DNA from: JACPSX01 sp035288405 [NCBI: bacterium]
GTDB lineage: Bacteria; JACPSX01
Direction: 5' to 3'
DNA length: 14,234 nucleotides
Assembly (NCBI GenBank): GCA_035288405.1
Contig: DATEAK010000276.1
Span: 1 to 14,234, forward strand
Below the pieces are notes generated by a model. It was given only the letters and a program-made list of their open reading frames with translations, searched no databases and was not told the DNA's origin. Of the stretch, positions 2,684-14,234 are shown in pieces. The first letter of the stretch is position 1. Every line of letters starts with the position of its first letter. The position numbers were made by a program, and so were the translations under genes.

Positions 2684-3037
2684 ATGCTTGTTGTGGCAAG
2701 ATCCAGGCAAGTGAAGAGTAGCCGGCCTCTCAAAGGGATTCTTCGGGAGCTTGCGCAGGCACTAAAAGACCGATACGGGGAGAAATTTGTGGGTCTCTGG
2801 CTCTATGGATCCCAGGCCCGCGGTCAGGCCCACGACCAATCAGACGTCGACCTTTTGTTGCTCCTGCGGGGAGAAGTCCGACCCTCAAAAGAAATTGACC
2901 GGATTGCCGACCTGCTGGCCGATTTTAACCTGCGGTACGGAGAACTCCTGTCGGTTCTCCCTGTACATGAGCAGACTTTCAAGAACGGCGACGGCCCTTT
3001 CTGGCGCAACGTGCGCCGGGAAGGCAAGGCCGCATGA
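2684..3037 (+). CDS. MNT-type minimal nucleotidyltransferase (orphan HEPN/MNT antitoxin)
   Basis: This 117-residue protein has the minimal nucleotidyltransferase fold. Near residues 38-60 it reads LWLYGSQARGQAHDQSDVDL, giving Gly42-Ser43 and the catalytic pair Asp54 and Asp56 of the GSx10DxD motif. In HEPN/MNT (type VII) systems this protein is the antitoxin, modifying or neutralising an HEPN RNase encoded next to it. Here the ATGA overlap at 3034-3037 would start the partner, but the reading frame there gives only a short HEPN-like beginning before an unrelated antitoxin-like protein. An alternative GTG start at 2711 (residue 10) fits the usual family length better; the ATG at 2684 follows a run of five G. 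The motif is intact, so the enzyme could still be active. Confidence 0.85.
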   Translation: MLVVARSRQVKSSRPLKGILRELAQALKDRYGEKFVGLWLYGSQARGQAHDQSDVDLLLLLRGEVRPSKEIDRIADLLADFNLRYGELLSVLPVHEQTFKNGDGPFWRNVRREGKAA

Positions 3038-4105: not shown

Positions 4106-4678
4106 CTAGCTCGCTGATTTGTTCCCGGCTGCCGGGGCCATGGCTGTGGGCTGCTTGCGGTGACACTTCTGGCAGTTTTCCTGGGTATTGTGGCAGCTTG
4201 CACATGCCTCCATGGAAGGCCGGTTCGTCGGTGTGATGCGGGCGTCGTGGGCGATGTTCACGTGACATTGCACGCAGGCGACTCCCATGTCGCCGGCGTG
4301 AAGCTTGTGAGGAATCTTGATCCCCTACACGTTGACTCGCATGATTCTGGGCTCGCCGTTTCCCACTTCCTTGTGGCAACTGCGGCACTTCTTGTCCACG
4401 TCACCGGGATCCGCTGAGAAGCTCTGCGGGAAACCTTGAGCAATGGGAAACTTGGCCTTGCCGTGGCAGCCGATGCAGGGAATTTTGGAGGTGTGCCCTG
4501 TAGCGGAGACTGCAAGAGGTGTGGCCCCCTGACCGTGGCAGGTCAGGCAAAAGCTCGGATTGCCGGAGGAGTAGCGGATCAGAGACAGAGTTCCCACGAT
4601 ACTGAGAACGATCGCAGCCACGCCTCCTAGGAGGATGGGGCCGCGCCAGCGATGAGGGATGCGGATCCCGGGATTCAT
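4106..4678 (-). pseudogene. Membrane-anchored six-heme cytochrome c with an in-frame TAG between hemes 3 and 4
   Basis: An ATG at 4678 with AGGAGG 9 bases upstream starts a protein with one N-terminal membrane anchor (about residues 15-35) and heme-attachment motifs at C44-H48, C68-H72 and C98-H102. A TAG at 4325-4327 (codon 118) follows RIMRVNV. The same frame then continues without interruption for 72 codons (GIKIPHKLH...) with three more motifs, C135-H139, C159-H163 and C169-H173, and a final TAG at 4106-4108. The layout suggests a NapC/NirT- or NrfH-like periplasmic electron carrier, last gene of the respiratory operon, 14 bases after the molybdoenzyme stop. If the TAG terminates, a three-heme protein remains. 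The part after it lacks a signal and could not be exported alone, so I list it as an interrupted gene. Alternatives are a recent nonsense change (for example GAG to TAG), a sequence error, or readthrough. Confidence 0.85.
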
Positions 4679-4692
4679 TATTGTTTTCCTCC

Positions 4693-6951
4693 TTACACCT
4701 TGGCTACTTCGACTTCAGTTTCCATCCAGGCGTATTCCTGGCTCACCGGATCTTCCTTTTTCGGAACGATGGCGTTTAGATAAATTCCGCTGCCTTGTCC
4801 CTCCCACCAGACCAGGAGGGTGTCGGGATCACTGCTCTTGAAGCTCTTGCCCCGGGCAATGCGGCCGTGCCCCCAGTGCCCGAAGCCTTCCGCACAGGCC
4901 ACCACCTGAGGGTGAACTCCCTGGCTGATCCGTACTTTCTGCGTGACGGTGCCGTTCGCAGTTTTCAGGCGCACCTGATCCCCCTCCCGCACATGCAGAG
5001 CTGCGGCGGTTTCAGGATGGAGCCACAGGGGGTTGTCATGCTGGATCTCGGCGAGCCACTTGCAGGCCGCGGTGCGAGACCCTCCGCGCACGGTGCCCTT
5101 GAAAGTGGCGAGCATGAGCCGGCCGTTCGTGCGCCCGTTTTTTTCGGGCTCATAGCTCGGCAATCCTGCGAATCCCTGGCGGTGCATGGCCTCGGAGTAA
5201 ACTTCAAAGCGGCGAGAGGCGGTCTTGAACCCTTTTCCCCGATACTGCCGGAATCGGGGCTTTGCTTTTTCGTTAAACCATACCCCTTTTTTCTTGAGGG
5301 CTTCAAACCCTCCGGCCCCGGCCAGTCCGTCGATCTTCGGGGCCACCTTTTCCAGGTAGTCTTCAAAACTCCGGTAGGGGAAGAACGGTTCGACTCCGGG
5401 GATTCGGCGCGCCAGATCCAGGCACACCTCGGTAAATGGTTTTACCTTGGGGGGAGGCGTGACGAGGGGTTGCCGCAAACTCACGTACGGTACGTGTTCG
5501 AAGCTGGGGCCTGACTCCAGATCCCAACGCTCGAGATAGGTGGCGTCGGGCAGGACCAAGTCGCACAAGATTGCGGTCTCGCTCATGAAGGTGTCCACTG
5601 CCACCGAGTAGGGAATGAGCCGCTCGTCCTTGAAGACTTGAGTGATGGACCCCGAGTCCGGGGAAGCGTAAACGGGGTTGGCGGTGTAGGCCAGGTAAAT
5701 TCCAACTTTGATTTTTCGGCGGGCAATGTCCGAGAACAGGTTGTTGTGGTGGAAGGGAGAAGCCTGGCTTACCTTGGGAGGCACCGGTGTCAGGTCCGGG
5801 ATCGCAGCTCGCCGAGGGAAACAGGGACCGCCGGGCACGTCGACGTTTCCGATCACGGCGTTCAGAAGCGCAACGCAGCGCTCGTTCTGTGTTCCCTGCT
5901 GCCGCATGGAAACTCCGCGACCCGTGAGTGTGGTCGCCGGCTTCGTGGTTGCAAACTCGCGGGCCAGCCTCCGGATCACTGCTGCCGGCACCCCGCTTAC
6001 CTTCTGGGCGGCTTCGGGCGTGTAGGGATCCAGGTGGCGGCGCATGTGAACCAGGGGGAAGTTCGTCCACTCTTCTAGAAACTGCCGGTCGTGGAGTCCT
6101 TCCTCGATGATGGTGCGGGCCATGGCCATGGCCACGAACCCGTCCGTTCCCGGAGTGATCGGGTACCACTCATCGCTGCGCCCCGAGGTGTTCGAGATGC
6201 GCACGTCGAAGGTGACCAGGCGGGCGCCGTTCATGCGAGCCTCGTTGAGGCGCTGGATGAGAGGCAGATGGAAGAGATAGGCCTCGTAAGGATTGCCGCC
6301 GAAGTTGAGGATGTATTTGCTACGGGAGATGTCGGGAATCAGCACATCCTCGCCGTAGGTGAGAAGAGAGGCTGTCTCCCGACTGGCGCCGCCCAGGGAA
6401 GTCTCCAGTGTGTCCGAGGAAGTTCCATAGGCATGCAGGAAGCGCCGCACGAAGTTCAGCGTGGCGTTCTCCTTGGACTTGAAGTTTCCCTGGAAGATGA
6501 AGCGGTCCGCCTGTCCTTTCGCCTTGAGCTCCTGCAGCTTGGTCGAGAGTTCCTGAATCGCCTGATCCCAGGAGATCTGTTCCCAGCGCATCTCCCCGCG
6601 CTTGCCCGTGCGCTTGAGGGGGAACAGGAGGCGATCCGGATTGTTCACCAGGTTGGTGCCCGCCTGGCCCCGGGCGCAGAGTTTGCCCCGATTATTGGGA
6701 TGCAGGGGATTACCCTCGATTTTCACCAGCCGCCCTGAGTTAGTATCCACGTAACCCAGGATGCCGCAGCCTGCCGCGCACTGAAAGCAGGTACTGGGGA
6801 TGGCGACCCGGGCTTTGCCGGTGGTACGTGATACTTCCTCTCCTCCCGGTTTGAGCTCCTGGCCGAGACCGGGCAGGGGAAGCATCTCCCCCAGGGCCAG
6901 AATTCCCGCCCCGCCGATTCCAAACTTAAGAAACCTTCTGCGATCAATCAT
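4693..6951 (-). CDS. Tat-exported molybdopterin oxidoreductase, catalytic subunit (PsrA/PhsA-like)
   Basis: This 752-residue protein has a Tat leader (DRRRFLKF at residues 3-10, then a hydrophobic stretch) and an N-terminal 4Fe-4S site C55-x2-C58-x3-C62-x29-C92. The Mo-bisMGD fold of the DMSO reductase superfamily follows, including FILNFGGNPYEA-like and FDVRISNTSGRSDEW segments and a C-terminal dinucleotide-binding domain (LHVREGDQVRLKTANG). The length suits polysulfide/thiosulfate-reductase-type enzymes, and the ferredoxin and NrfD neighbours fit that architecture. It would act on the outer face of the membrane. The place where many relatives have the Cys ligand to Mo reads S-L-G-G-A-S (185-190), with no Cys or SeCys, so the active site differs and the substrate cannot be assigned. 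The start ATG comes 2 bases after the SPFH stop codon, with no strong ribosome site, suggesting coupled translation. Confidence 0.92.
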   Translation of the reverse strand: MIDRRRFLKFGIGGAGILALGEMLPLPGLGQELKPGGEEVSRTTGKARVAIPSTCFQCAAGCGILGYVDTNSGRLVKIEGNPLHPNNRGKLCARGQAGTNLVNNPDRLLFPLKRTGKRGEMRWEQISWDQAIQELSTKLQELKAKGQADRFIFQGNFKSKENATLNFVRRFLHAYGTSSDTLETSLGGASRETASLLTYGEDVLIPDISRSKYILNFGGNPYEAYLFHLPLIQRLNEARMNGARLVTFDVRISNTSGRSDEWYPITPGTDGFVAMAMARTIIEEGLHDRQFLEEWTNFPLVHMRRHLDPYTPEAAQKVSGVPAAVIRRLAREFATTKPATTLTGRGVSMRQQGTQNERCVALLNAVIGNVDVPGGPCFPRRAAIPDLTPVPPKVSQASPFHHNNLFSDIARRKIKVGIYLAYTANPVYASPDSGSITQVFKDERLIPYSVAVDTFMSETAILCDLVLPDATYLERWDLESGPSFEHVPYVSLRQPLVTPPPKVKPFTEVCLDLARRIPGVEPFFPYRSFEDYLEKVAPKIDGLAGAGGFEALKKKGVWFNEKAKPRFRQYRGKGFKTASRRFEVYSEAMHRQGFAGLPSYEPEKNGRTNGRLMLATFKGTVRGGSRTAACKWLAEIQHDNPLWLHPETAAALHVREGDQVRLKTANGTVTQKVRISQGVHPQVVACAEGFGHWGHGRIARGKSFKSSDPDTLLVWWEGQGSGIYLNAIVPKKEDPVSQEYAWMETEVEVAKV

Positions 6952-6953
6952 CG

Positions 6954-7952
6954 TTATTCACTCGCTGAATGGCTGCCGTTGGCGTCCGGCTTTTCACCGT
7001 TGCCGCTGTTGCTGTTCGTAATCTTGTTGAGCGCGGTCACGCCCATGAGAGCTCCCAGCCCCATGGTTTCGACGGCCGAGCTCGGTACGATGACCATGGA
7101 GCCCCTCTCCTTGAGGCCTTCGTAGAGCATGTTCATGGCTCGCAGGTGAAGGGCCGTGGGATTATCCTTGTAGGATTCGGCTGCCTCGGCGAACATCTGG
7201 GCAATCTGAGTCTCCGATCGTCCGAGGATCACTCGGGCCTGACGCTCTCTCTCTGCCTGGGCCTGGATCGACAGGGCGTCCTGGAGAGAGGCCGGGATGA
7301 TCACGTCCCGGATCTCCACGGAAAGAACCTGAAGGCCCCAGCCGTCGGTGCGCTTGTCAATGAGGTTCTTGATCTGCTCGTCGATATTCTCACGCCCCAC
7401 GAGCATATCGGAGAGCTCGCTCTTGCCGATCACATCCCGCAGAGCCGTCTGGGATGCCCAGCTGATCACGTCGTAGTAGTCGGTGACTTCCAGTGCCGCT
7501 TTTTCAGGGTTGACGACTTTCCAGAAGCAGACGGCGTCCACGTCTACGGGGACGTTGTCTTTGGTCAAGGTTTCCTCGGCCCGGAAGCCGGTAGCGGTTA
7601 GCCGCAGGTCGATCCAGTAGGGAATCGTGTCAATCAGGGGGAAGATGAAAAAGAGGCCCGGGCCCGCCATCCTATGGAATTTCCCCAAGCGCAGGACGAT
7701 GGCGCGCTCCCACTGAGTCGCGACCTTCAGAGCCAGAAGGATAAACACGCCCACCGCCAGCAGAATCCCAGTAGGAATCGGGTTGTTTGTCAGGACGAAG
7801 GCCCCTACTCCGAACAGGGCGCACGCCACAAACAAGGTGGCCGAGAGGAGATTCGGGCGCAGCGTACCGGCCCGGATCTTCTGGGCCTCGAACTCATCCT
7901 GCTGTCTTTTGGCGGCGCGCCGGATCTCTTGCTTGGTACTCGGTTCCATCAT
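6954..7952 (-). CDS. SPFH/stomatin-like (slipin) membrane protein
   Basis: This 332-residue protein has a charged N-terminus and two hydrophobic segments at about 35-55 and 60-79. An SPFH domain follows (QWERAIVLRLGKF, then PGLFFIFPLIDTI and RAEETLTKDNVPVDVDAVCF), and then a helical, coiled-coil-prone stretch rich in Ala, Glu and Arg (IQAQAERERQARVILGRSE). This is the stomatin/slipin layout; such proteins form membrane-bound oligomeric scaffolds and often pair with an NfeD protein, which is absent here. It has AAGGAGGAA upstream of a doubled ATG and sits between the NrfD and molybdoenzyme genes. It is therefore probably made together with the complex and may organise or stabilise it in the membrane (inference). 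The C-terminal 20 residues are Asn/Ser/Gly-rich and probably disordered. Confidence 0.9.
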   Translation of the reverse strand: MMEPSTKQEIRRAAKRQQDEFEAQKIRAGTLRPNLLSATLFVACALFGVGAFVLTNNPIPTGILLAVGVFILLALKVATQWERAIVLRLGKFHRMAGPGLFFIFPLIDTIPYWIDLRLTATGFRAEETLTKDNVPVDVDAVCFWKVVNPEKAALEVTDYYDVISWASQTALRDVIGKSELSDMLVGRENIDEQIKNLIDKRTDGWGLQVLSVEIRDVIIPASLQDALSIQAQAERERQARVILGRSETQIAQMFAEAAESYKDNPTALHLRAMNMLYEGLKERGSMVIVPSSAVETMGLGALMGVTALNKITNSNSGNGEKPDANGSHSASE

Positions 7953-7979: not shown

Positions 7980-8879
7980 TTAGTGTTGGGGAATTGCCTG
8001 TCCGCCGATTACCATGGTGTAGCGCATCGCGAAGATTCCGAGCATGACTAGAACCGAGGCCACCGAGATCCCAAAGGGGGTCCGGGTGATGCGGTTGCTC
8101 AAGAGGGCAAGGGGGACCAGCGCCCCCAGGAGGATCTCTCCTCCCAGGAAGATATTTCGGAAGGCCCCTGTGAGGATGAGTTGTGCGGCCTCGTACGCTT
8201 CGTCGTGGGAGTTCAAGAGGACGAGAATGTCCGTGCCGATCAGGGAGAGATCCGCAACGATGGATACGATCAGCATGACCACCAGGCCGTTGATGAGGTC
8301 CATGTTAATCTTGCGCTCGGCGCTGAAGAATTTGTCCCGGGCGATTGCGATCAGAATCATCATGGCGATTCCGGAAACCATGGCCGAAGCCAGAAAGATG
8401 AAGGGCATCAACGCCGTGTTCCACAAAATGCGCGCCTTGGCCAGAGCCAGGATGAACCCCGTGTAGCCGTGCACCGACAGGGCGAGCGGGATGCCGATCA
8501 AGCCGAAGATCTTTGTGAGCTTGGCTTTTCCCATAAACATGAAAGTTCCGTAGATCATGCAGTTGATCGGGTACAGGGTGAGAAGAAACGAACCGTAAGA
8601 AATGGCCGAAGTTGGGTTGATGTAGTAGAAGAGTTCCCAGAAGCGCCAGGGCTGCTCCAGGTCGATCATCAAGTTCAAGGGCGCCACGATAAGGAGCAGG
8701 ATAGCCACGACGACGCCGATCTTCCCCAGGGGCTTGTAGCGGATCATGCCGAAGCCGTAAGCCAGTGTGGACAGGATGAAGGAACCGGCGCTGAGTCCCG
8801 TGAGATAGAAATAAACGGCAATGGGGATCCCCAGAGCCTCTCCGTAAGCGACGTTGTAAATGGTCGTAACTTCAGTCAT
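7980..8879 (-). CDS. NrfD/PsrC-family quinone-interacting membrane subunit
   Basis: This 299-residue, strongly hydrophobic protein has about eight membrane helices. The first helix region reads GIPIAVYFYLTGLSAGSFIL, typical of NrfD/PsrC, and the central part has LSVHGYTGFILALAKARILWN, also characteristic. NrfD proteins exchange electrons between the menaquinone pool and the attached four-cluster ferredoxin subunit. The gene starts one base after the ferredoxin stop (TAAGATG), with GAGGAAG inside the ferredoxin 3' end as ribosome site. It is the membrane component of the complex whose other parts are the ferredoxin upstream and the molybdoenzyme downstream. No heme ligation pattern of the cytochrome-b type is evident. 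Confidence 0.92.
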   Translation of the reverse strand: MTEVTTIYNVAYGEALGIPIAVYFYLTGLSAGSFILSTLAYGFGMIRYKPLGKIGVVVAILLLIVAPLNLMIDLEQPWRFWELFYYINPTSAISYGSFLLTLYPINCMIYGTFMFMGKAKLTKIFGLIGIPLALSVHGYTGFILALAKARILWNTALMPFIFLASAMVSGIAMMILIAIARDKFFSAERKINMDLINGLVVMLIVSIVADLSLIGTDILVLLNSHDEAYEAAQLILTGAFRNIFLGGEILLGALVPLALLSNRITRTPFGISVASVLVMLGIFAMRYTMVIGGQAIPQH

Positions 8880-8880
8880 C

Positions 8881-9486
8881 TTAGGCTTCCTCTACCCTTG
8901 TTTTGGCGGCCATCTCATCGAGGCCGATATAGAAAACTCGGGGCTCGGTCCCCTTCTCGGGCTTGAGAACCTGGATTGCGTTGGTGGCGATGAGACGGGA
9001 GATTTCGCTTTCGGGGTCGTTCACGTCTCCAAACACGCGGGCCCCGCCGGGACAGGTGTTGACACAAGACGGCACCAGCCCGGCGTCCACCCGGTGAAAG
9101 CAGAAGGTGCATTTCTGCACGATTTTCTTGACGGGGTTCACGTGCCGGGCGTCGTAAGGACAGGCGGCCATGCAATACTTGCAGCCGATGCAGCGGTGCT
9201 CGTCGATCATGACGATGCCGTCGGGCCTGCGGTAGGTCGCTTTCACGGGGCACACGCTCAGGCAAGCGGGACGCTCGCAGTTGTTGCACAGGCTGGGGAT
9301 GAAGACACGCCGTACGTTGGGGTAAGACCCTTTCTCTACGGTCTTGACCCAGGTCCGGTAGACTCCGAGGGGAACATCGTTTTCACTCTTGCAGGCAACG
9401 GCGCAGGAGTGACAGCCCAGGCAGCGCCTCAAGTCAATGAGCATGGCGTAGCGTTTGCTTTTTTTTTGGGAACCATTCCCTTTCAC
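8881..9486 (-). CDS. Four-cluster 4Fe-4S ferredoxin subunit (PsrB/NrfC/HybA-like)
   Basis: This 201-residue protein has four cysteine clusters in the order typical of DMSO-reductase-type electron-transfer subunits: C22-x2-C25-x2-C28-x3-C32, then CNNCERPACLSVCP, CIGCKYCMAACPYDARHV and CTFCFHRVDAGLVPSCVNTC. These would hold four 4Fe-4S clusters that connect NrfD to the molybdoenzyme. It has no export signal of its own, so it would be carried out with the Tat-exported catalytic subunit, as known for this family. The start is a GTG, 2 bases after the stop of the 40-residue protein upstream, with AGGGAAG as a modest ribosome site; a later ATG at codon 15 falls too close to the first cluster. Confidence 0.93.
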   Translation of the reverse strand: MKGNGSQKKSKRYAMLIDLRRCLGCHSCAVACKSENDVPLGVYRTWVKTVEKGSYPNVRRVFIPSLCNNCERPACLSVCPVKATYRRPDGIVMIDEHRCIGCKYCMAACPYDARHVNPVKKIVQKCTFCFHRVDAGLVPSCVNTCPGGARVFGDVNDPESEISRLIATNAIQVLKPEKGTEPRVFYIGLDEMAAKTRVEEA

Positions 9487-9488
9487 GA

Positions 9489-9611
9489 TTACTTCCCTTT
9501 TTCAGAAAGGTTTTTCCCCTGCGCGCCAAAGGCGTGCCAGCTCCAGGCGGCAAACAGCGCCACCGCAAACAAAATTCCGCCGAACGTCAAAAAGATCTTA
9601 AACCAGGTCAC
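9489..9611 (-). CDS. 40-residue single-span membrane microprotein
   Basis: A GTG at 9611 preceded by GGAGGAACCA opens a 40-residue frame ending in TAA, 2 bases before the ferredoxin start. The product begins MTWFKIFLTFGGILFAVALF, contains one membrane helix (about residues 4-24) with Trp residues at its far end, and finishes in a short polar tail rich in Lys and Gly. The good ribosome site, the tight spacing on the downstream side and the coherent transmembrane pattern argue for a real gene. It may be a small accessory subunit of the NrfD complex, comparable to small subunits of other respiratory complexes; that role is inference. Confidence 0.7.
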   Translation of the reverse strand: MTWFKIFLTFGGILFAVALFAAWSWHAFGAQGKNLSEKGK

Positions 9612-9637
9612 TGGTTCCTCCTTTCATGGCCTTCGCG

Positions 9638-10054
9638 TTACCCTGAGTTCGGGGGGGTGCCCTCAGAGGAAAAGAATTGCTGTACCGTCCTGAGCCCGAT
9701 GAGGAGAGGAGTGGGCTCGGAGGACGCTGCGGGATCGAGGTTCTTCTCTGGGTCGAACCTCTCCAGGGATCTGTTGACGAGATGTTTGGTGATGGCTCCC
9801 ACGGCCAGCGCTACTAGAGAGCCTACGGCCAGCCAGAAGAGGCAGGCCACGGCCACTGCGAGGGCCATGCCGCCGACTACGAAGAGGGTGACGACTCCGC
9901 GCTCCGGCAGGGGAGAACCCATGATACTCACTGCCGAGATCAAGCCGAAAGAGCCCCCATAAAATATTCCCCAGGGAACTCCCACGAACAGAAAAACTGC
10001 GGCACCGGCAACAGCGCCGACTTTCAGTTGGAGTCGCAGTGCTCGTCGTGTCAT
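9638..10054 (-). CDS. Small integral membrane protein of unknown function
   Basis: I do not recognise the family. The 138-residue product has a basic N-terminus, a hydrophobic segment at about 11-47 and another long one at about 53-90, so two to three membrane helices. A polar tail of about 45 residues follows, with Pro, Ser and Glu, which is probably cytoplasmic by the positive-inside rule. A good AGGAGAGG site precedes the ATG. It lies between the degenerate receiver gene and the 40-residue microprotein in the same transcription unit, so it is probably an accessory or assembly protein of the respiratory complex (inference from position only). Confidence 0.75.
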   Translation of the reverse strand: MTRRALRLQLKVGAVAGAAVFLFVGVPWGIFYGGSFGLISAVSIMGSPLPERGVVTLFVVGGMALAVAVACLFWLAVGSLVALAVGAITKHLVNRSLERFDPEKNLDPAASSEPTPLLIGLRTVQQFFSSEGTPPNSG

Positions 10055-10063
10055 GGCCCTCTC

Positions 10064-10495
10064 CTATTTTTGTACGCCCCCCTCCAGGGCCCGCAAAATC
10101 TGCCGCGGCTGGAAGGGCTCGAGAAAGCAAGGGAAGAAATCGACTTGCTCTCTTTCGCCACCGCAAAGCTCCGACTCATCTCCCACGGTTAGAATCACTC
10201 TGACCCCGGGATTGAGTCGGCGCACGATGGAAGCCACTTCGTATCCGGAAAGATCCCGAAGCTTCCCCTTGATGATGACTGCGTCCACCCCTCCGTTGAG
10301 CACCATGGAGACGGCCTTTCGGCCCTGGCGGGTTCGGGAAACCCGGTAGCCTTCCTCCTCGAGGAAATCCGTAAGGGACTCGCACTGGTCCTGTTCGTCG
10401 TGAACGAGAAGAATGCGCCGAACCTCGGGCCTTTCCGTGTCTCCGTTGCCCCTGGAGAAGAACTTTTTCCCAAGGAGATCCATCAATCCGTTCAT
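10064..10495 (-). CDS. Degenerate response-regulator receiver protein (pseudo-receiver)
   Basis: This 143-residue product consists of a short leader and one receiver-like domain with no output domain. RILLVHDEQDQ (27-37) matches the first strand of CheY-like domains, but one of the two acidic residues is His32. The strand that should carry the phospho-accepting Asp reads DAVIIKGKL, placing Lys76 there. The usual K-P-F motif near the end is EPF. Thr in VILTVG is kept. The domain therefore probably cannot be phosphorylated in the normal way and may act as a protein-interaction module. I chose the ATG at 10495 because AGAGGAA precedes it and the sigma-54 promoter at 10530-10545 would start the RNA near 10519, which rules out the longer frame from 10546. 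It is the first gene of the respiratory operon. Confidence 0.82.
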   Translation of the reverse strand: MNGLMDLLGKKFFSRGNGDTERPEVRRILLVHDEQDQCESLTDFLEEEGYRVSRTRQGRKAVSMVLNGGVDAVIIKGKLRDLSGYEVASIVRRLNPGVRVILTVGDESELCGGEREQVDFFPCFLEPFQPRQILRALEGGVQK

Positions 10496-10529
10496 CGGTG
10501 GTTCCTCTGTTAGTGTTGCCATGGAGAAG

Positions 10530-10545
10530 TGCAGGTTGTGTGCCA
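10530..10545 (-). promoter_or_regulatory. Sigma-54 (-24/-12) promoter of the respiratory operon
   Basis: The minus strand reads TGGCACACAACCTGCA. This matches the sigma-54 pattern TGGCAC-N5-TTGCW with the required 10 bases between the invariant GG (10543-10544) and GC (10531-10532); the only mismatch in the boxes is C for the first T of TTGC. The transcript would begin near 10519, giving a leader of about 24 bases that contains the AGAGGAA ribosome site for the ATG at 10495. The gene directly upstream encodes a sigma-54-dependent activator with an intact GAFTGA motif, which makes functional use likely. Confidence 0.8.
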
Positions 10546-10592
10546 CAGCGCCGACACACCGGCAACGCCTTAGCAGGCCGCTGAAAAAGTCT

Positions 10593-10620
10593 CGTGGTTC
10601 GACAGGCTCACCACGAACGG
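10593..10620 (+). repeat. REP-like palindromic repeat, copy 1
   Basis: The unit CGTGGTTCGACAGGCTCACC-ACGAACGG contains a 6-base inverted repeat (CGTGGT / ACCACG). It is inverted relative to the copy at 10648-10675 and related to it by the shared TTCGACA, GCTCA and CGAACGG blocks. This sequence type (TTCGACA-GGCTCA/CTGAGC-TTGTCGAA) recurs as intergenic repeats in many bacterial genomes. Confidence 0.65.
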
Positions 10621-10647
10621 TTAAGTACTAATGTTTTCAATAGCAGT

Positions 10648-10675
10648 CCCGTTCGGCCTGAGCTTGTCGAAGGCC
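10648..10675 (-). repeat. REP-like palindromic repeat, copy 2 (inverted)
   Basis: CCCGTTCGGCCTGAGC-TTGTCGAAGGCC is the inverted partner of the repeat at 10593-10620, with 27 AT-rich bases between them. It also has internal GGCCT / AGGCC arms. The pair lies between the response regulator gene and the sigma-54 promoter, so it could end or stabilise the upstream transcript, or simply be a mobile REP pair. Confidence 0.65.
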
Positions 10676-10784
10676 AAATGGAGGGCGTTAGATTTGCTGG
10701 AAGATTTGAGGGTCTGAGGAGTGTTCAGGAAGTTCGGAAAGGAGGGGAGAAAAAAAGTGAAACGAAGTTTTGCAAAGGATCATT

Positions 10785-12167
10785 TCATTCTTTAATGTCT
10801 TTCTGGCTCTCCTCAATCTTGCGCCAGAGGGTCACGGTGCTGATTCCGAGGATCTCAGAAGCCTTTTTGCGGTTCCAGCGGGTGGCCTGCAGAACTTCCA
10901 AAATGTAGTCTTGCTCGATCTTCTTGAGGGAAGGGTATTGATCAACCCCCTTGGCGTCATTTATAGCAACAGATGAGGCGGGTACCGCTTCGCTGTTGAG
11001 CTGGCTGAAGCTGTCTATGGTGATTATCTCTGCTTCGGTGAGGATCACGGCGCGCTCGACGGCGTTTTCCAGCTCCCGGACATTTCCAGGCCACGGGTAG
11101 CTCTCCAGGAGAGCACGAGCTCCAGGGGTGAACCCCCTCACCCGTTTCTTCAAATCCGCGTTATACTTCGCGAGAAAGTAGTCGGCCAGCAGAGGAATAT
11201 CTCCCGGTCGTTCACGCAAGGGAGGAAGCATGATCGGCATCACATTCAGCCGGTAGTAGAGATCCTCGCGAAAGGTGCCGCGGCGGATGGCATCCTTCAG
11301 ATCCCGATTCGTGGCCGCCACGATGCGCACATCTACGAAGACCTTGCGCTCGCTTCCCACGGGCTGGATCTCTCTCTCCTGCAAGGCTCGCATGAGCTTG
11401 GCCTGGAGATCAACGCTCATGTCCCCTACCTCGTCCAGGAACAAAGTTCCGCCGTCGGCGAGCTCGAAGAGCCCTTTCTTACGGCGCAGGGCTCCGGTAA
11501 AGGCGCCCTTCTCATGGCCAAAGAGCTCGCTTTCCAGGAGATCCGCGGGGATGGCGGCGCAATTGACCACCACCAACTGGCCGTTGGCACGGCTGCTCTT
11601 CTGATGAACCTGCCGGGCCACGAGCTCCTTGCCCGTTCCCGTTTCCCCCAGGATCAGCACCGTGGAATCAGTGACGGCCACCTTGTCGATGAGCTGGCAT
11701 ACTTTCTGAATGGGGTCACTCTCGCCGATGATTTTTCCGGCGCTCACGGAACGGCGCAGGGCTTCCTTGAGGGCCCGGTTTTCCTGGAGGAGGTGCTGGC
11801 GCTCCAGGGCATTTTTGATCACCAGGCGCAGCTCGTCGGGGGTGAAGGGCTTGGGAACGTAGTCTACAGCCCCCTCCCGCATGGATTCCACCGCCGTGTC
11901 CACGTCGGCGTAACCCGTGATCATGATGACCGCCAGTTGGGAATCGATTTTGTGAAGGGATCGCAGGAGCTCGATGCCGCTCATCTTGGGCATCTTGATG
12001 TCGGCCACGATGATATCGAAAGCGTCGGTCCGAAAGCGCTCAAGGGCTTCGAAGCCGTTGCTGCAGGTCACGACCTCGTAATTTTCTTTCTTGAGGGCTT
12101 GGGTGCAGGCGTCCCGTGTGTCTTCCTCGTCGTCCACGATCAGGATGCGCTTGCGGGGCAGTTCCAT
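10785..12167 (-). CDS. NtrC-family sigma-54-dependent response regulator
   Basis: This 460-residue protein has the full three-domain layout. The receiver (about 5-120) carries VDDEED at 11-16, the phospho-accepting Asp56 in VADIKMP and a normal KPF. The AAA+ domain (about 140-380) carries Walker A GETGTGKE, the sigma-54-contacting GAFTGA loop, Walker B GTLFLDEVGDM and the sensor-region motifs YRLNV and YPWPGNVREL. The C-terminal Fis-type helix-turn-helix is RKKASEILGISTVTLWRKI. It binds enhancer DNA and, when phosphorylated, drives sigma-54 polymerase. It starts 13 bases after the kinase gene, with AGGGAAAGGG as ribosome site, so the two form a two-component pair. Its likely target is the sigma-54 promoter just downstream at 10530-10545. 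No enhancer palindrome was identified with confidence. Confidence 0.95.
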   Translation of the reverse strand: MELPRKRILIVDDEEDTRDACTQALKKENYEVVTCSNGFEALERFRTDAFDIIVADIKMPKMSGIELLRSLHKIDSQLAVIMITGYADVDTAVESMREGAVDYVPKPFTPDELRLVIKNALERQHLLQENRALKEALRRSVSAGKIIGESDPIQKVCQLIDKVAVTDSTVLILGETGTGKELVARQVHQKSSRANGQLVVVNCAAIPADLLESELFGHEKGAFTGALRRKKGLFELADGGTLFLDEVGDMSVDLQAKLMRALQEREIQPVGSERKVFVDVRIVAATNRDLKDAIRRGTFREDLYYRLNVMPIMLPPLRERPGDIPLLADYFLAKYNADLKKRVRGFTPGARALLESYPWPGNVRELENAVERAVILTEAEIITIDSFSQLNSEAVPASSVAINDAKGVDQYPSLKKIEQDYILEVLQATRWNRKKASEILGISTVTLWRKIEESQKDIKE

Positions 12168-12180
12168 AAACCCTTTCCCT

Positions 12181-14037
12181 CTATGCAGACACCGCAGCCA
12201 CGCCGGCCTGCACCGGAAGGCGAAAGATCAGAGCCGTCCCTCCTTCACCGTTGCCGCTCTCAATCCAGATGTTTCCCCCGTGCCTCTGGATGATCCCGTA
12301 ACAGATGGAGAGACCGAGTCCCGTCCCTTTATCTTTGGTCGTGTAAAAGGGCTCGAAAACTTTGGAGTGCAGTGCCTTGGGAATGCCGGGCCCGTTGTCT
12401 TTTACCGTCACAACGACCCAGTCTAGATCGAGTGCCCGGGTAATGACCTCGATCCGTCCTCCGGCATGAAATGCCTGGACGGAGTTCTGCATGACGTTCA
12501 CCAGAACCTGCTGGATCTGACTGCGGTCGCAGATAACCCGGGGAAGATCGGGTTCCAAGTGCAAGTGACACTCTACATTATTAATACGGATCTCGTTGGC
12601 CAAAATGCTATTGGCGGCCAGGACGATCTGATTCATATCGTTGGGTTCCATGTCCGTGTTGGTGCTGCGAGTGTAGTCCAGCAGATCCGAGACGATCTTC
12701 TTGCTGCGCACCACGTTGTCCACGATCTTGCGGATGTTCTTGTAATGAGGATCCTCGGGGGCGGTTTCCTCCAGGACGAGCTTGGAATAGAGGAGGATGT
12801 TTCCCAAGGGATTGTTGATCTCATGAGCCACGCCGGCGGCGAGCTGCCCCGTGGCTGCCAGGCGCTCGGAGTGGATGAGCTGCTTTTGCAGTGATTCCCG
12901 GCTCTTCTCCTCGGTGAGATCGTGGGTAATATCCACATAGGCCAGGGTGTGGTCGTGCTCGTCTCGCAGGCTGCTGATGTTGACAAAAGCAGGGAAAGTT
13001 TTACCGTTCTTGCGCAGAAGCTGAATCTCGCTCCGGTAGGATCCTTCCAGTTCAACGGCATTCCAGACTCGACGCTGCGTCTCTCCCAGGAGGGAGTAAG
13101 GCTCACCGGTTAGTTCCATAGCACCGTAGCCGAGCATCTCCTCGGCGCCGTGACTGAAGAAAAGGATGGTGCCGTTGGGATCTATGACGATGATGGACTC
13201 GCGCACGTTGCCAAGCACCCGCTCCAGGAGTTCCTTTTTGTCCCGAATCTCGATGGAGCGTTTGAGGGCGTCGGCCATCTCGTTGAAGGATTGGGCCAGA
13301 ACTCCGATCTCGTCTTCTCCTTCGCCCAGAACTTTCCTGTCGAAATCCCCCTTGCTGAAGAACTTCGTCAAGTCCACGAGCTTTTTCAGGCGGTTGATCA
13401 CCAGGCGGTTCAACAGGAGACTCAGGACGATGACCGCGGTGATGATCATGAGTCCCATGGAGTAGAGAACCTCTCTGAATTTCGTGGCGATTTGCTTCTC
13501 AATGTCGGTCATGGAGAAGTCGGTGATGAGGACCCCGTTGATCTTGGTCAGGGGACTGTGACAGCCGTAGCACTCGGGTTCGTTGAAGATGGGGTTCACG
13601 TTGCGGAAGATTTGCTCGCCGTTCTCTTCCTTATATATGACGGTCTTGTTACGCACTTCGGGGCTATACCGGTGGCAGATCTGGCAGGTGTAATCGTTCT
13701 GATTGAGGATCTCACCGACCCGTCTCATCTCCGGGGACATCTTGATCTCCCCGCGCTTGTCCACCAGGAAAATGTTGTCTACCCCCTTCTGCTTGCCGAC
13801 GGTTTCGATGATGTAGCGGGCCTCCTCCAGATCGCGGTTGATCATGGCGTGCTTGAGGCTCCCCTTGATGACGTCGCTTAAGTAATGGGTGCTGGAATCC
13901 CGCAGGTTTTCGATGAGGTCGTGGCGAAAGCGGAACACCTGGTAGCTGTAGAAGACCGACATGATGGCCACGATGGCCACCACGATCCCCACAGTTGCCT
14001 TGAAGCGTAAGCTTTGATGAAACCTCTTGATCCTCAA
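12181..14037 (-). CDS. Membrane sensor histidine kinase with two extracytoplasmic c-type heme motifs
   Basis: The kinase is about 618 residues. Membrane helix 1 is at about 14-32. An extracytoplasmic sensor domain follows with CQICH at 118-122 and CYGCH at 156-160, then membrane helix 2 (about 192-214), a HAMP linker and a PAS domain (near 285-400, DPNGTILFFSHGAEEMLGYG). The HisKA domain has the phospho-accepting His405 in HEINNP, and an HATPase domain follows with DNGPGIP and GTGLGLS. The heme motifs point to covalent heme attachment outside the cytoplasm and a redox- or ligand-sensing role. The start is uncertain: the frame opens with a TTG at 14118 that has no ribosome site. I prefer the TTG at 14037, which gives the usual short basic leader (RIKRFHQSLRFK) before helix 1 and has a weak AGGTTGG upstream. 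It is co-transcribed with the regulator downstream. Confidence 0.92.
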   Translation of the reverse strand: MRIKRFHQSLRFKATVGIVVAIVAIMSVFYSYQVFRFRHDLIENLRDSSTHYLSDVIKGSLKHAMINRDLEEARYIIETVGKQKGVDNIFLVDKRGEIKMSPEMRRVGEILNQNDYTCQICHRYSPEVRNKTVIYKEENGEQIFRNVNPIFNEPECYGCHSPLTKINGVLITDFSMTDIEKQIATKFREVLYSMGLMIITAVIVLSLLLNRLVINRLKKLVDLTKFFSKGDFDRKVLGEGEDEIGVLAQSFNEMADALKRSIEIRDKKELLERVLGNVRESIIVIDPNGTILFFSHGAEEMLGYGAMELTGEPYSLLGETQRRVWNAVELEGSYRSEIQLLRKNGKTFPAFVNISSLRDEHDHTLAYVDITHDLTEEKSRESLQKQLIHSERLAATGQLAAGVAHEINNPLGNILLYSKLVLEETAPEDPHYKNIRKIVDNVVRSKKIVSDLLDYTRSTNTDMEPNDMNQIVLAANSILANEIRINNVECHLHLEPDLPRVICDRSQIQQVLVNVMQNSVQAFHAGGRIEVITRALDLDWVVVTVKDNGPGIPKALHSKVFEPFYTTKDKGTGLGLSICYGIIQRHGGNIWIESGNGEGGTALIFRLPVQAGVAAVSA

Positions 14038-14177
14038 AGGCCAACCTATGGATGCAGAACGAACTTCGAACGGTTGACCCCTCCCAATGGGGAATACATG
14101 TAGTCTCTTTGGGGACAAATGGCAACTAAGGTAATTGCACTACGCGCTGGGGTCCGGCCGGAGAGGGGATTGTGGCC

Positions 14178-14202
14178 GGGGGTTAAATCAGTGATTTCCC
14201 CC
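14178..14202. other. Imperfect hairpin upstream of the kinase gene
   Basis: GGGGG-TT-AAATCA-G-TGATTT-CCCCC forms a stem of 6 plus 5 pairs with a two-base bulge and a one-base centre. On neither strand is it followed by a clear T run, so it is not a standard intrinsic terminator. It could be an operator or a processed stem in the leader of the kinase-regulator transcript. Confidence 0.4.
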
Positions 14203-14208
14203 CCTCCC

Positions 14209-14234
14209 CCCGTTCTCCCTGAGCCAGTCGAAGG
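14209..14234 (-). repeat. REP-like repeat, third and partly degenerate copy at the right edge
   Basis: CCCGTTCTCCCTGAGCC-AGTCGAAGG resembles the repeat at 10648-10675 (CCCGTTCGGCCTGAGCTTGTCGAAGG), with about five differences by eye. It touches the window edge, so any partner copy lies outside. It shows that the repeat type occurs at both ends of the two-component gene pair. Confidence 0.5.

What the first reader, a model, noticed from the sequence alone, without database searches (positions are those of the whole stretch)
10064..14118. Complete sensor-to-promoter circuit: heme kinase, NtrC-type activator and a sigma-54 promoter at the head of the respiratory operon
The activator has an intact phospho-acceptor, GAFTGA loop and Fis helix-turn-helix. 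The sequence between it and the next gene contains TGGCAC-N5-CTGCA with correct GG/GC spacing, 35 bases before a start codon with its own ribosome site. This predicts that the whole downstream molybdoenzyme/NrfD operon is switched on by a signal read at an extracytoplasmic heme. The promoter match and gene order are seen; the regulatory link is inferred.
Basis: partly seen in the sequence, partly recalled or inferred. Interest (0 to 1): 0.7.

Follow-up and report, generated by a model that had tools for sequence, protein, structure and literature searches.

The report
Heme-kinase switch for respiratory genes
A bacterium related to groundwater bacteria carries a sensor protein with two heme-binding motifs, a partner gene activator and the matching type of promoter in front of a set of respiratory genes; distant relatives keep the same layout, so this looks like a real switch built from known kinds of parts, with one odd member: its first gene makes a signal-receiver protein that seems unable to be switched on in the usual way.

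Summary
On the minus strand lie a histidine kinase with two extracytoplasmic CxxCH motifs (14118-12181), an NtrC-type regulator with intact Asp, GAFTGA loop and Fis helix-turn-helix (12167-10785), a -24/-12 element (10545-10530) and an operon starting with a small receiver (ATG 10495). Alone the promoter match is weak (3 of 20 Markov-shuffled windows have one as good). Position and conservation make it convincing: the 87%-identical relative keeps it (1 difference in 23 bases; 12 in the 27 before it), and of five relatives with the order kinase-regulator-receiver, four (the close one included) have their best -24/-12 site at that junction; the fifth has a GT-for-GC variant. The sensor is a two-heme relative of known c-heme Cache domains, so each part is of a known kind. 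Less expected: the operon's first gene encodes a pseudo-receiver lacking key residues in all six cassette loci, and the 'molybdoenzyme' has Gly where PsrA has a Cys. RpoN was not found in the relative's draft and could not be checked for the window. Signal, transcript start and regulation are inferred.

The parts
12181..14118 (-). sensor histidine kinase, extracytoplasmic sensor with two CxxCH motifs, HAMP, PAS, HisKA, HATPase_c; start codon uncertain (the relative's frame begins 27 residues later)
13558..13686 (-). stretch encoding the two heme motifs CQICH (13686-13672) and CYGCH (13572-13558)
   Evidence: of 18 aligned sensors (chosen from 51 loci) 18 have the second motif (11 CxxCH, 7 Cx4CH) and 15 the first
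10785..12167 (-). NtrC/AtoC-like response regulator: receiver with intact Asp, AAA+ with GAFTGA, Fis HTH
10758..10787 (-). tentative regulator-binding dyad TGAAATGA-N14-TCGTTTCA at and after the regulator's stop, both arms kept in L001; not seen in L105
   Evidence: found by eye, no test
10573..10691 (.). stretch of about 119 nt without counterpart in L001, able to form a long imperfect stem-loop
10530..10545 (-). -24/-12 (sigma-54 type) promoter element TGGCACACAACCTGCA; predicted +1 at 10519
10064..10495 (-). stand-alone pseudo-receiver, first gene of the operon (acceptor Asp replaced by Lys)
9638..10054 (-). small protein, membrane-like by eye, no Pfam or NCBIfam match
8881..9486 (-). 4Fe-4S electron-transfer subunit (most bits to TtrB; over the DsrO cut-off, 208.9 of 200)
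7980..8879 (-). NrfD/PsrC-type membrane subunit
6954..7952 (-). SPFH/band-7 protein (HflK-like)
4693..6951 (-). CISM catalytic-type subunit, nearest solved relative PsrA; Gly in place of the PsrA Cys recalled as Mo ligand
4106..4678 (-). cytochrome c gene with six CxxCH motifs, interrupted in frame by TAG in the window; uninterrupted in L001

Best explanation
A two-component switch. The kinase carries a Cache-type sensor outside the cytoplasmic membrane with two c-type heme sites. A change at those hemes (most likely the redox state of the periplasm or of the respiratory chain, less likely NO binding) alters kinase activity. The kinase phosphorylates the adjacent NtrC-type regulator, which assembles on a site upstream of the -24/-12 element and, by ATP hydrolysis, opens sigma-54 polymerase there. 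This turns on the operon: pseudo-receiver, small membrane protein, FeS subunit, NrfD, band-7 protein, CISM subunit and multiheme cytochrome c. Shown: gene content, intact catalytic motifs, the element, its conservation at that junction. Inferred: heme attachment, signal, phosphotransfer, binding site, transcript, and any role of the pseudo-receiver (plausibly feedback on kinase or regulator).
For: Intact motifs. The element is a conserved island in L001; of the 7 codons that differ in the overlapping upstream reading frame 5 change the amino acid, so coding does not explain the conservation. Junction test: 26 loci with heme kinase plus AAA+ regulator, 8 with p<0.05, all 8 at or below 0.002 (window and L001 among them), Fisher P 6e-9; five cassette loci without the near-copy L001, P 1.4e-8; 9 loci whose regulator lacks AAA+: 1 with p<0.05 (0.041), P 0.57. 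Shuffled-gap P 0.001-0.0275 in the six cassette loci. L105 has a terminator-like stem and T run between regulator and element (by eye). No sigma-70-type match at the scan's threshold in 9600-14234 (0 found, 1.5 expected). Gaps between the operon's genes are 1-27 nt, except 151 nt before the FeS gene. Heme-kinase stretches of 16 kb or more hold NrfD or a cytochrome with at least 3 hemes in 28 of 33 cases against 0 of 20 arbitrary stretches of six of the same genomes. RpoN domain in 80 of 98 genomes searched, G032 and G087 included, G001 not; 12 of 20 activator loci of G001 have a GAFTGA-type loop.
Against: The match alone is at chance level for a 14-kb window, and a second site in the window scores almost the same (9539-9524), so an internal start before the FeS gene is possible. 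18 of the 26 AAA+ loci show no significant site just after the regulator (p 0.055-0.971). The loci are not independent (several per genome, some near-copies), so the Fisher values overstate. L107, with the same order, has only a GT-for-GC variant. In L106 no respiratory gene was recognised behind the receiver. No RpoN domain was found in G001, a 2.9-Mb draft whose completeness is not given; no genome is held for the window. No convincing activator site shared by window and L105. In the window an extra 119 nt or so separates the putative activator site from the promoter. A terminator-like site lies inside the operon at 10019-10000 (7 such sites found in the region, 4.9 expected). The scoring weights were mine, from a recalled consensus.
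Confidence: 0.8

Rival explanations
1. The -24/-12 element is a real sigma-54 promoter, but the adjacent regulator acts mainly elsewhere and another activator drives this operon.
For: G001 encodes many activators (15 AAA+ matches at E 6e-67 or better; 12 of 20 loci with GAFTGA-type loop); no binding site for this regulator could be demonstrated.
Against: Kinase, regulator, promoter and receiver stand in this order in L001, L105, L106 and L108, and the regulator shared with L105 at 61% identity has a closely similar C-terminal recognition region.
Confidence: 0.1
2. The element is a chance match; the operon is read through from kinase-regulator or from a sigma-70 promoter the scan does not see.
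For: 3 of 20 Markov windows have an equal best site; a second site scores almost the same; no RpoN found in G001.
Against: Conserved island in L001; same junction in distant relatives; terminator-like stem before the element in L105; stem-loop stretch between regulator and element in the window.
Confidence: 0.07
3. The circuit is real but the kinase is a periplasmic NO sensor, so the operon answers nitric oxide rather than redox poise. (This rival concerns the signal only and can hold together with the best explanation's wiring.)
For: A signalling-type c-heme Cache domain is reported to behave as an NO sensor (PMC12889525, preprint; abstract, sections 7 and 13 and passages read); the profile of 18 sensors matches that family.
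Against: The motif that defines that family is one CxxCH, this sensor has two; the regulated genes look like an electron-transfer complex, not an NO-detoxifying enzyme; the loci are rich in multiheme cytochromes and NrfD.
Confidence: 0.25

Closest known systems
BccR-cbcBA circuit of Geobacter sulfurreducens (BccR, its type and its locus GSU0598 are recalled; the paper is not held; CbcBA induction when easier acceptors are absent, near -0.2 V, seen in a passage of PMC12307469)
   Same: A regulator, recalled as sigma-54-dependent, helps to induce a respiratory cytochrome operon at low redox potential; a protein with an additional heme motif, GSU0599, is reported in that genome (PMC3831638, passage) and would be BccR's neighbour by recalled numbering.
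   Different: The operon here is a PsrABC-like complex with band-7 protein, cytochrome and a leading pseudo-receiver, not a bc-type cytochrome; different lineage. Linkage and sigma-54 dependence of BccR were not checked here.
sCache_heme (DUF3365/Tll0287) sensor domains, incl. GSU0582 and GSU0935
   Same: CxxCH near the end of a Cache-like domain; the profile of 18 sensors finds 3b42 (E 4e-10) and 3b47 (E 1e-8).
   Different: A second, more N-terminal CxxCH. Additional motifs were already noted for Adeh_2011, Adeh_3383, GSU0591 and GSU0599 (PMC3831638, passage). The window's sensor alone matches 3b47 only at E 0.24, the six-member profile at 9e-6.
NtrC-family response regulators (AtoC, ZraR, NtrC)
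   Same: Full receiver-AAA+-Fis architecture; best solved match 4l4u, E 6e-109.
   Different: Below the cut-off of all 25 NCBIfam models shown (of 119 matched), e.g. AtoC 506.9 of 714 bits.
Polysulfide/thiosulfate reductase PsrABC and the Qrc complex
   Same: CISM subunit + FeS subunit + NrfD/PsrC; Qrc also has a multiheme cytochrome and a QrcB without Mo/W-pterin cofactor (PMC6303296, passages).
   Different: The PsrA Cys is Gly here; PhsA and all three Qrc subunit models are below cut-off; the FeS subunit is over the cut-off of another complex's subunit, DsrO (208.9 of 200), but NrfD is far below DsrP (70.3 of 350); a band-7 gene lies in the operon.
Pseudo-receivers / aspartate-less receivers (PMC12632262, passages), with CmrT of CmrRST discussed there
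   Same: A receiver lacking conserved residues, encoded with a two-component pair.
   Different: Single-domain, at the head of a putative sigma-54 operon of respiratory genes.

Membership tests
sigma-54 (-24/-12) promoter | GG and GC separated by 10 bases within TGGCAC-N5-TTGC (consensus recalled) | tested here: met
   one departure (C for the first T)
sigma-54 (-24/-12) promoter | conservation at the same place in relatives | tested here: met
   4 of 5 cassette relatives, variant in L107
sigma-54 (-24/-12) promoter | RpoN in the same organism | tested here: inconclusive
   no genome held for the window; none found in G001; 80 of 98 genomes searched have it
sigma-54 (-24/-12) promoter | transcript start 12 bases after the GC and activator dependence | not testable with these tools
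   needs RNA and mutants
NtrC-family response regulator | receiver with Asp, AAA+ with Walker motifs and GAFTGA, Fis-type HTH | tested here: met
AtoC equivalog | NCBIfam score above cut-off | tested here: not met
   506.9 of 714 bits
sCache_heme sensor domain | CxxCH in the C-terminal part of the domain and similarity to GSU0582/GSU0935 | tested here: met
   (profile of 18); weaker with fewer sequences
sCache_heme sensor domain | Pfam Tll0287-like (PF11845) above its cut-off | tested here: not met
   15.2 of 24.1 bits for the window; 8 of 18 members match at E<=1; Mcp40H-20_sensor PF21563 21.2 of 27 bits, 17 of 18 members at E<=1
sCache_heme sensor domain | Cache fold | tested here: inconclusive
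   model pLDDT 46, not used; WalK sensor chains matched at E about 1e-3
sCache_heme sensor domain | covalent heme c, NO binding | not testable with these tools
   needs protein
[quoted passage not shown]
   PF00072 47.5 bits, cut-off 30.2; acceptor Asp replaced by Lys
Polysulfide reductase PsrA / thiosulfate reductase PhsA | Cys ligand to Mo (recalled) and score over the PhsA cut-off | tested here: not met
   Gly at the aligned place; PhsA 340.5 of 694 bits
Qrc menaquinone reductase | QrcB, QrcC, QrcD above NCBIfam cut-offs | tested here: not met
   196.6 of 440, 128.7 of 400, 34 of 570 bits
DsrMKJOP complex | DsrO and DsrP above NCBIfam cut-offs | tested here: not met
   DsrO 208.9 of 200 (met), DsrP 70.3 of 350 (not met)

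The most novel reading that the evidence does not exclude
The operon's first product, a receiver protein that can no longer take a phosphoryl group, is a dedicated feedback part of the circuit: once sigma-54 polymerase is switched on, the pseudo-receiver docks on the kinase or on the regulator's receiver and limits or sharpens the response. Its presence right behind the promoter in several genomes, each time with key residues lost, would make this a conserved heme-kinase / NtrC / pseudo-receiver module for respiratory complexes.
Probability: 0.3. Interest if true: 0.62.

Novelty: new variant of a known kind. Interest (0 to 1): 0.5.

Why it matters
It ties a two-heme extracytoplasmic kinase to a specific promoter and a specific respiratory complex in a close relative of a Candidatus Tectomicrobia draft genome, with a clear and testable prediction. 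The recurring pseudo-receiver at the head of the operon gives a natural set of cases for asking how receivers that cannot be phosphorylated act; a 2025 paper calls the mechanisms that switch bacterial pseudo-receivers a mystery (PMC12632262, abstract and passages).

Tried and rejected
Chance match: rejected on position and conservation, although the match alone is not significant. Upstream GTG start of the receiver gene (10546), which would put the promoter inside the gene: rejected because 5 of the 7 codons differing from L001 in 10546-10496 change the amino acid while the element itself is kept. GAFTGA as a discriminator: the 27 AAA+ regulators examined carry GAFTGA, GAYTGA or GAFTDA, and junction hits do not follow the loop type (6 of 19 with GAFTGA against 2 of 8 without). 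Shared activator site in window, L001 and L105: TTGCAAAA and a few other short words are shared by window and L105, but none of 7 bases or more by L001 as well. Structure of the sensor: two-sequence AlphaFold model too poor for a fold search. Searching relatives of G087 and of G311 again covered 386 genomes each and listed the same matches, so those two searches added nothing. Search by phylum of G001 reached only G001. Literature: ten searches; no title or abstract start listed there describes this kinase-regulator-pseudo-receiver-NrfD arrangement; the lists were capped and I opened nine papers in part (passages or sections), so this is weak evidence of absence. The D. vulgaris sigma-54 regulome paper (PMC4641369, passages) has no occurrence of NrfD or heme but describes a regulator beside the Ohc cytochrome complex; PMC12316311 (passages) has no occurrence of NrfD or cytochrome; PMC12325454 and PMC2577667 (passages) gave nothing on GSU0598 or GSU0599.
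Full report
What is there. On the minus strand the window reads, in order: a sensor histidine kinase (14118-12181), an NtrC-type response regulator (12167-10785), a 289-base gap, a 143-residue receiver (10495-10064), a small protein without family match (10054-9638), an FeS subunit (9486-8881), an NrfD protein (8879-7980), an SPFH/band-7 protein (7952-6954), a CISM-type subunit (6951-4693) and a cytochrome c (4678-4106, with an in-frame TAG). Gaps from the receiver on are 9, 151, 1, 27, 2 and 14 bases. The kinase has HAMP, PAS, HisKA and HATPase_c domains and two CxxCH motifs before the HAMP domain. The regulator has an intact receiver, GAFTGA and a Fis-type helix-turn-helix; its best solved relative is an NtrC-family regulator, 4l4u, E 6e-109.

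The promoter match by itself. TGGCACACAACCTGCA (10545-10530) is the only match with one mismatch to TGGCAC-N5-TTGCW in the window; but at up to three mismatches the window has 50 matches with 54 expected, 3 of 20 Markov-shuffled windows contain a site scoring as high, and a second site in the window, 38 bases before the FeS gene, scores 14.2 against 14.3. So by itself the match could be chance. Restricted to the gap between regulator and receiver, the best site is better than in shuffled gaps (P 0.007). No sigma-70-type promoter was found by the consensus scan in 9600-14234 (0 found, 1.5 expected in shuffles).

The close relative. The scan of named genome contigs with the CISM protein gave one locus, 90% identical: L001, a Candidatus Tectomicrobia draft genome whose isolate name says groundwater. 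DNA identity along the operon and the two-component genes is 86-88%, and the whole gene order is kept. The gap there is 171 bases; the 23 bases GTGGCACACAACCTGCACTTCTC differ at one position, the 27 bases just upstream at 12. The window has about 119 extra bases in the gap (10573-10691); the stretch 10546-10700 folds more strongly than shuffles (z -2.9, 1 of 200 as stable). An in-frame upstream GTG (10546) exists in both, but of 7 codons differing between it and ATG 10495, 5 change the amino acid, so coding does not explain why the element is kept.

Distant relatives. A search of 386 genomes with the sensor part of the kinase gave matches in 55. I fetched 49 stretches around listed matches, mostly the best-scoring, and annotated them with the window's proteins. 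L105 has kinase, regulator (61% identical), receiver (34%), five-heme cytochrome, CISM subunit, FeS, NrfD and band-7 (56%) in one direction. L108 has kinase, regulator, receiver, five-heme cytochrome, CISM, FeS, NrfD; L107 kinase, regulator, receiver, eleven-heme cytochrome, band-7, then the contig end; L106 kinase, regulator, receiver, with no respiratory gene recognised in the remaining 3 kb. In L105, L106 and L108 the best -24/-12 site of the whole stretch lies between regulator and receiver; in L107 the best site in that gap is AGGCACGATTTTTGTA, with GT for GC. L105 also shows, by eye, an inverted repeat followed by a T run in the gap just before the element, as expected if the operon starts there.

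The test over all usable loci. Of 51 stretches (49 plus window and L001), 35 had a response regulator within 1.5 kb behind a recognised heme kinase on the same strand and enough sequence after it; the other 16 were dropped by these rules. For each I compared the best site in the 400 bases after the regulator with windows of equal length elsewhere in the stretch. Regulator with AAA+ domain: 26 loci, 8 with p<0.05 (window, L001, L105, L106, L108, L133, L150, L151; all at or below 0.002), L107 at 0.055, the remaining 17 from 0.109 to 0.971; Fisher P 6e-9. Regulator without AAA+: 9 loci, one with p<0.05 (0.041), Fisher P 0.57. The loci are not independent (several per genome, some near-copies), so these P values are too small. 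Some loci in which the respiratory genes lie elsewhere have a strong site ahead of those genes instead (L110 TGGCACGCTATTTGCA 920 bases and L123 TGGCACGCGTGTTGCT 865 bases before the next recognised respiratory gene); I did not test these formally. The score weights were mine and the consensus recalled; an unweighted version gave P 0.002-0.0725 for the six cassette gaps.

Link to respiration. Of 33 heme-kinase stretches of 16 kb or more, 28 hold an NrfD protein (16) or a cytochrome with at least three hemes (24); of 20 arbitrary 19.5-kb stretches from six of the same genomes, none does.

Sigma-54 itself. No genome is held for the window. In the relative's draft genome neither the DNA-binding nor the core-binding domain of RpoN was found, but it has 15 AAA+ activator matches at E 6e-67 or better, a GAFTGA-type loop in 12 of 20 activator loci, and 7 exact TGGCAC-N5-YTGCA matches against 1 for the reversed pattern; 80 of 98 genomes searched have RpoN, including G087 and G032 that carry the cassette (G311 was not in that search). 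I read the absence as missing sequence, but it is not shown.

The sensor. In 18 aligned sensors (chosen from the 51 loci) the second heme motif is kept in 18 (11 CxxCH, 7 Cx4CH) and the first in 15. The profile of all 18 finds the periplasmic heme-c domains 3b42 (E 4e-10) and 3b47 (E 1e-8), and WalK sensor domains at about 1e-3; with the six cassette sensors only, 3b47 is found at 9e-6 and 3b42 at 0.001, and the window's sensor alone reaches 0.24. That family is named sCache_heme in a 2026 preprint, whose tested signalling member bound NO (PMC12889525; abstract, sections 7 and 13 and passages read). Sensors with an additional heme motif were already noted in Anaeromyxobacter and Geobacter (PMC3831638, passage). 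So the two-heme sensor is not new in kind.

The receiver. Aligned to the regulator's own receiver, the window's small receiver has His-Asp for the Asp-Asp pair and Lys for the phospho-acceptor Asp; the Thr and Lys positions are also changed. The corresponding small receivers have Lys (L001, L105), Ala (L106), Glu (L107) and, next to a divergent regulator, Gly (L132) at the acceptor; L108 keeps Asp but lacks the acidic pair. By the published definition these are pseudo-receivers (PMC12632262, passages). L133 has an intact, longer receiver-containing protein instead and was not counted; small receivers in loci without AAA+ regulator were not examined. That paper discusses pseudo-receivers acting by contact with the other parts of a two-component pair; here such a role is a guess.

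The complex. The CISM subunit's nearest solved relative is PsrA (2vpw, E 1.8e-65), and the PsrA stretch SLCTAPRE aligns with SLGGASRE, so the Cys that I recall as the Mo ligand is Gly; in my alignment L105 and L108 have no Cys there either. QrcB is a known relative without Mo/W-pterin cofactor (PMC6303296, passages). The FeS subunit has most bits to TtrB (259.0 of 416) but passes the DsrO cut-off (208.9 of 200), while NrfD is far below DsrP (70.3 of 350). Whether the CISM subunit holds Mo is open, so I do not name the complex.

Verdict. Observation confirmed; interpretation supported; parts of known kinds in a conserved arrangement with an unusual leading gene. The closest functional precedent I know, BccR and cbcBA in Geobacter, is partly recalled.

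Noticed in passing
4106-4678 (-), TAG at 4325-4327: The cytochrome c gene is interrupted in frame by a TAG; the frame continues with three more CxxCH motifs, and L001 has an uninterrupted 188-residue gene. Nonsense mutation, assembly error or read-through cannot be told apart.
   Followed up: partly
4693-6951 (-): CISM subunit has Gly where PsrA has the Cys recalled as Mo ligand; L105 and L108 have no Cys there either.
   Followed up: partly
6954-7952 (-): An SPFH/band-7 gene sits inside the respiratory operon; L105 and L107 keep a 53-56% identical copy with the cassette. Its role there is unknown.
   Followed up: no
10573-10691: About 119 bases without counterpart in L001, holding an imperfect inverted pair seen by eye and in the fold (the repeat search at 18 nt listed none there); a similar piece seems to end the window near 14220 (by eye).
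   Followed up: partly
2452-2507 and 4139-4194: Direct repeat, 80% identical: a stray copy of the cytochrome gene's 3' part; L001 has several matching pieces.
   Followed up: no
9524-9539 (-): Second-best -24/-12-like site of the window (TGGCACGCCTTTGGCG), just before the FeS gene; L001 has a weaker one at the corresponding place (5096-5111).
   Followed up: no
9489-9611 (-): Possible 40-residue peptide, membrane-like by eye, in the 151-base gap before the FeS gene (translated).
   Followed up: no
10000-10019 (-): Terminator-like stem and T run inside the small membrane protein gene; such sites are at about chance number in the region.
   Followed up: no
2684-3037 (+): ORF whose start looks like a small nucleotidyltransferase; by eye only, not searched.
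   Followed up: no
L109, L110, L111, L113, L119, L132, L144 (sensor parts): Seven of 18 aligned sensors have Cx4CH instead of CxxCH as the second heme motif.
   Followed up: no
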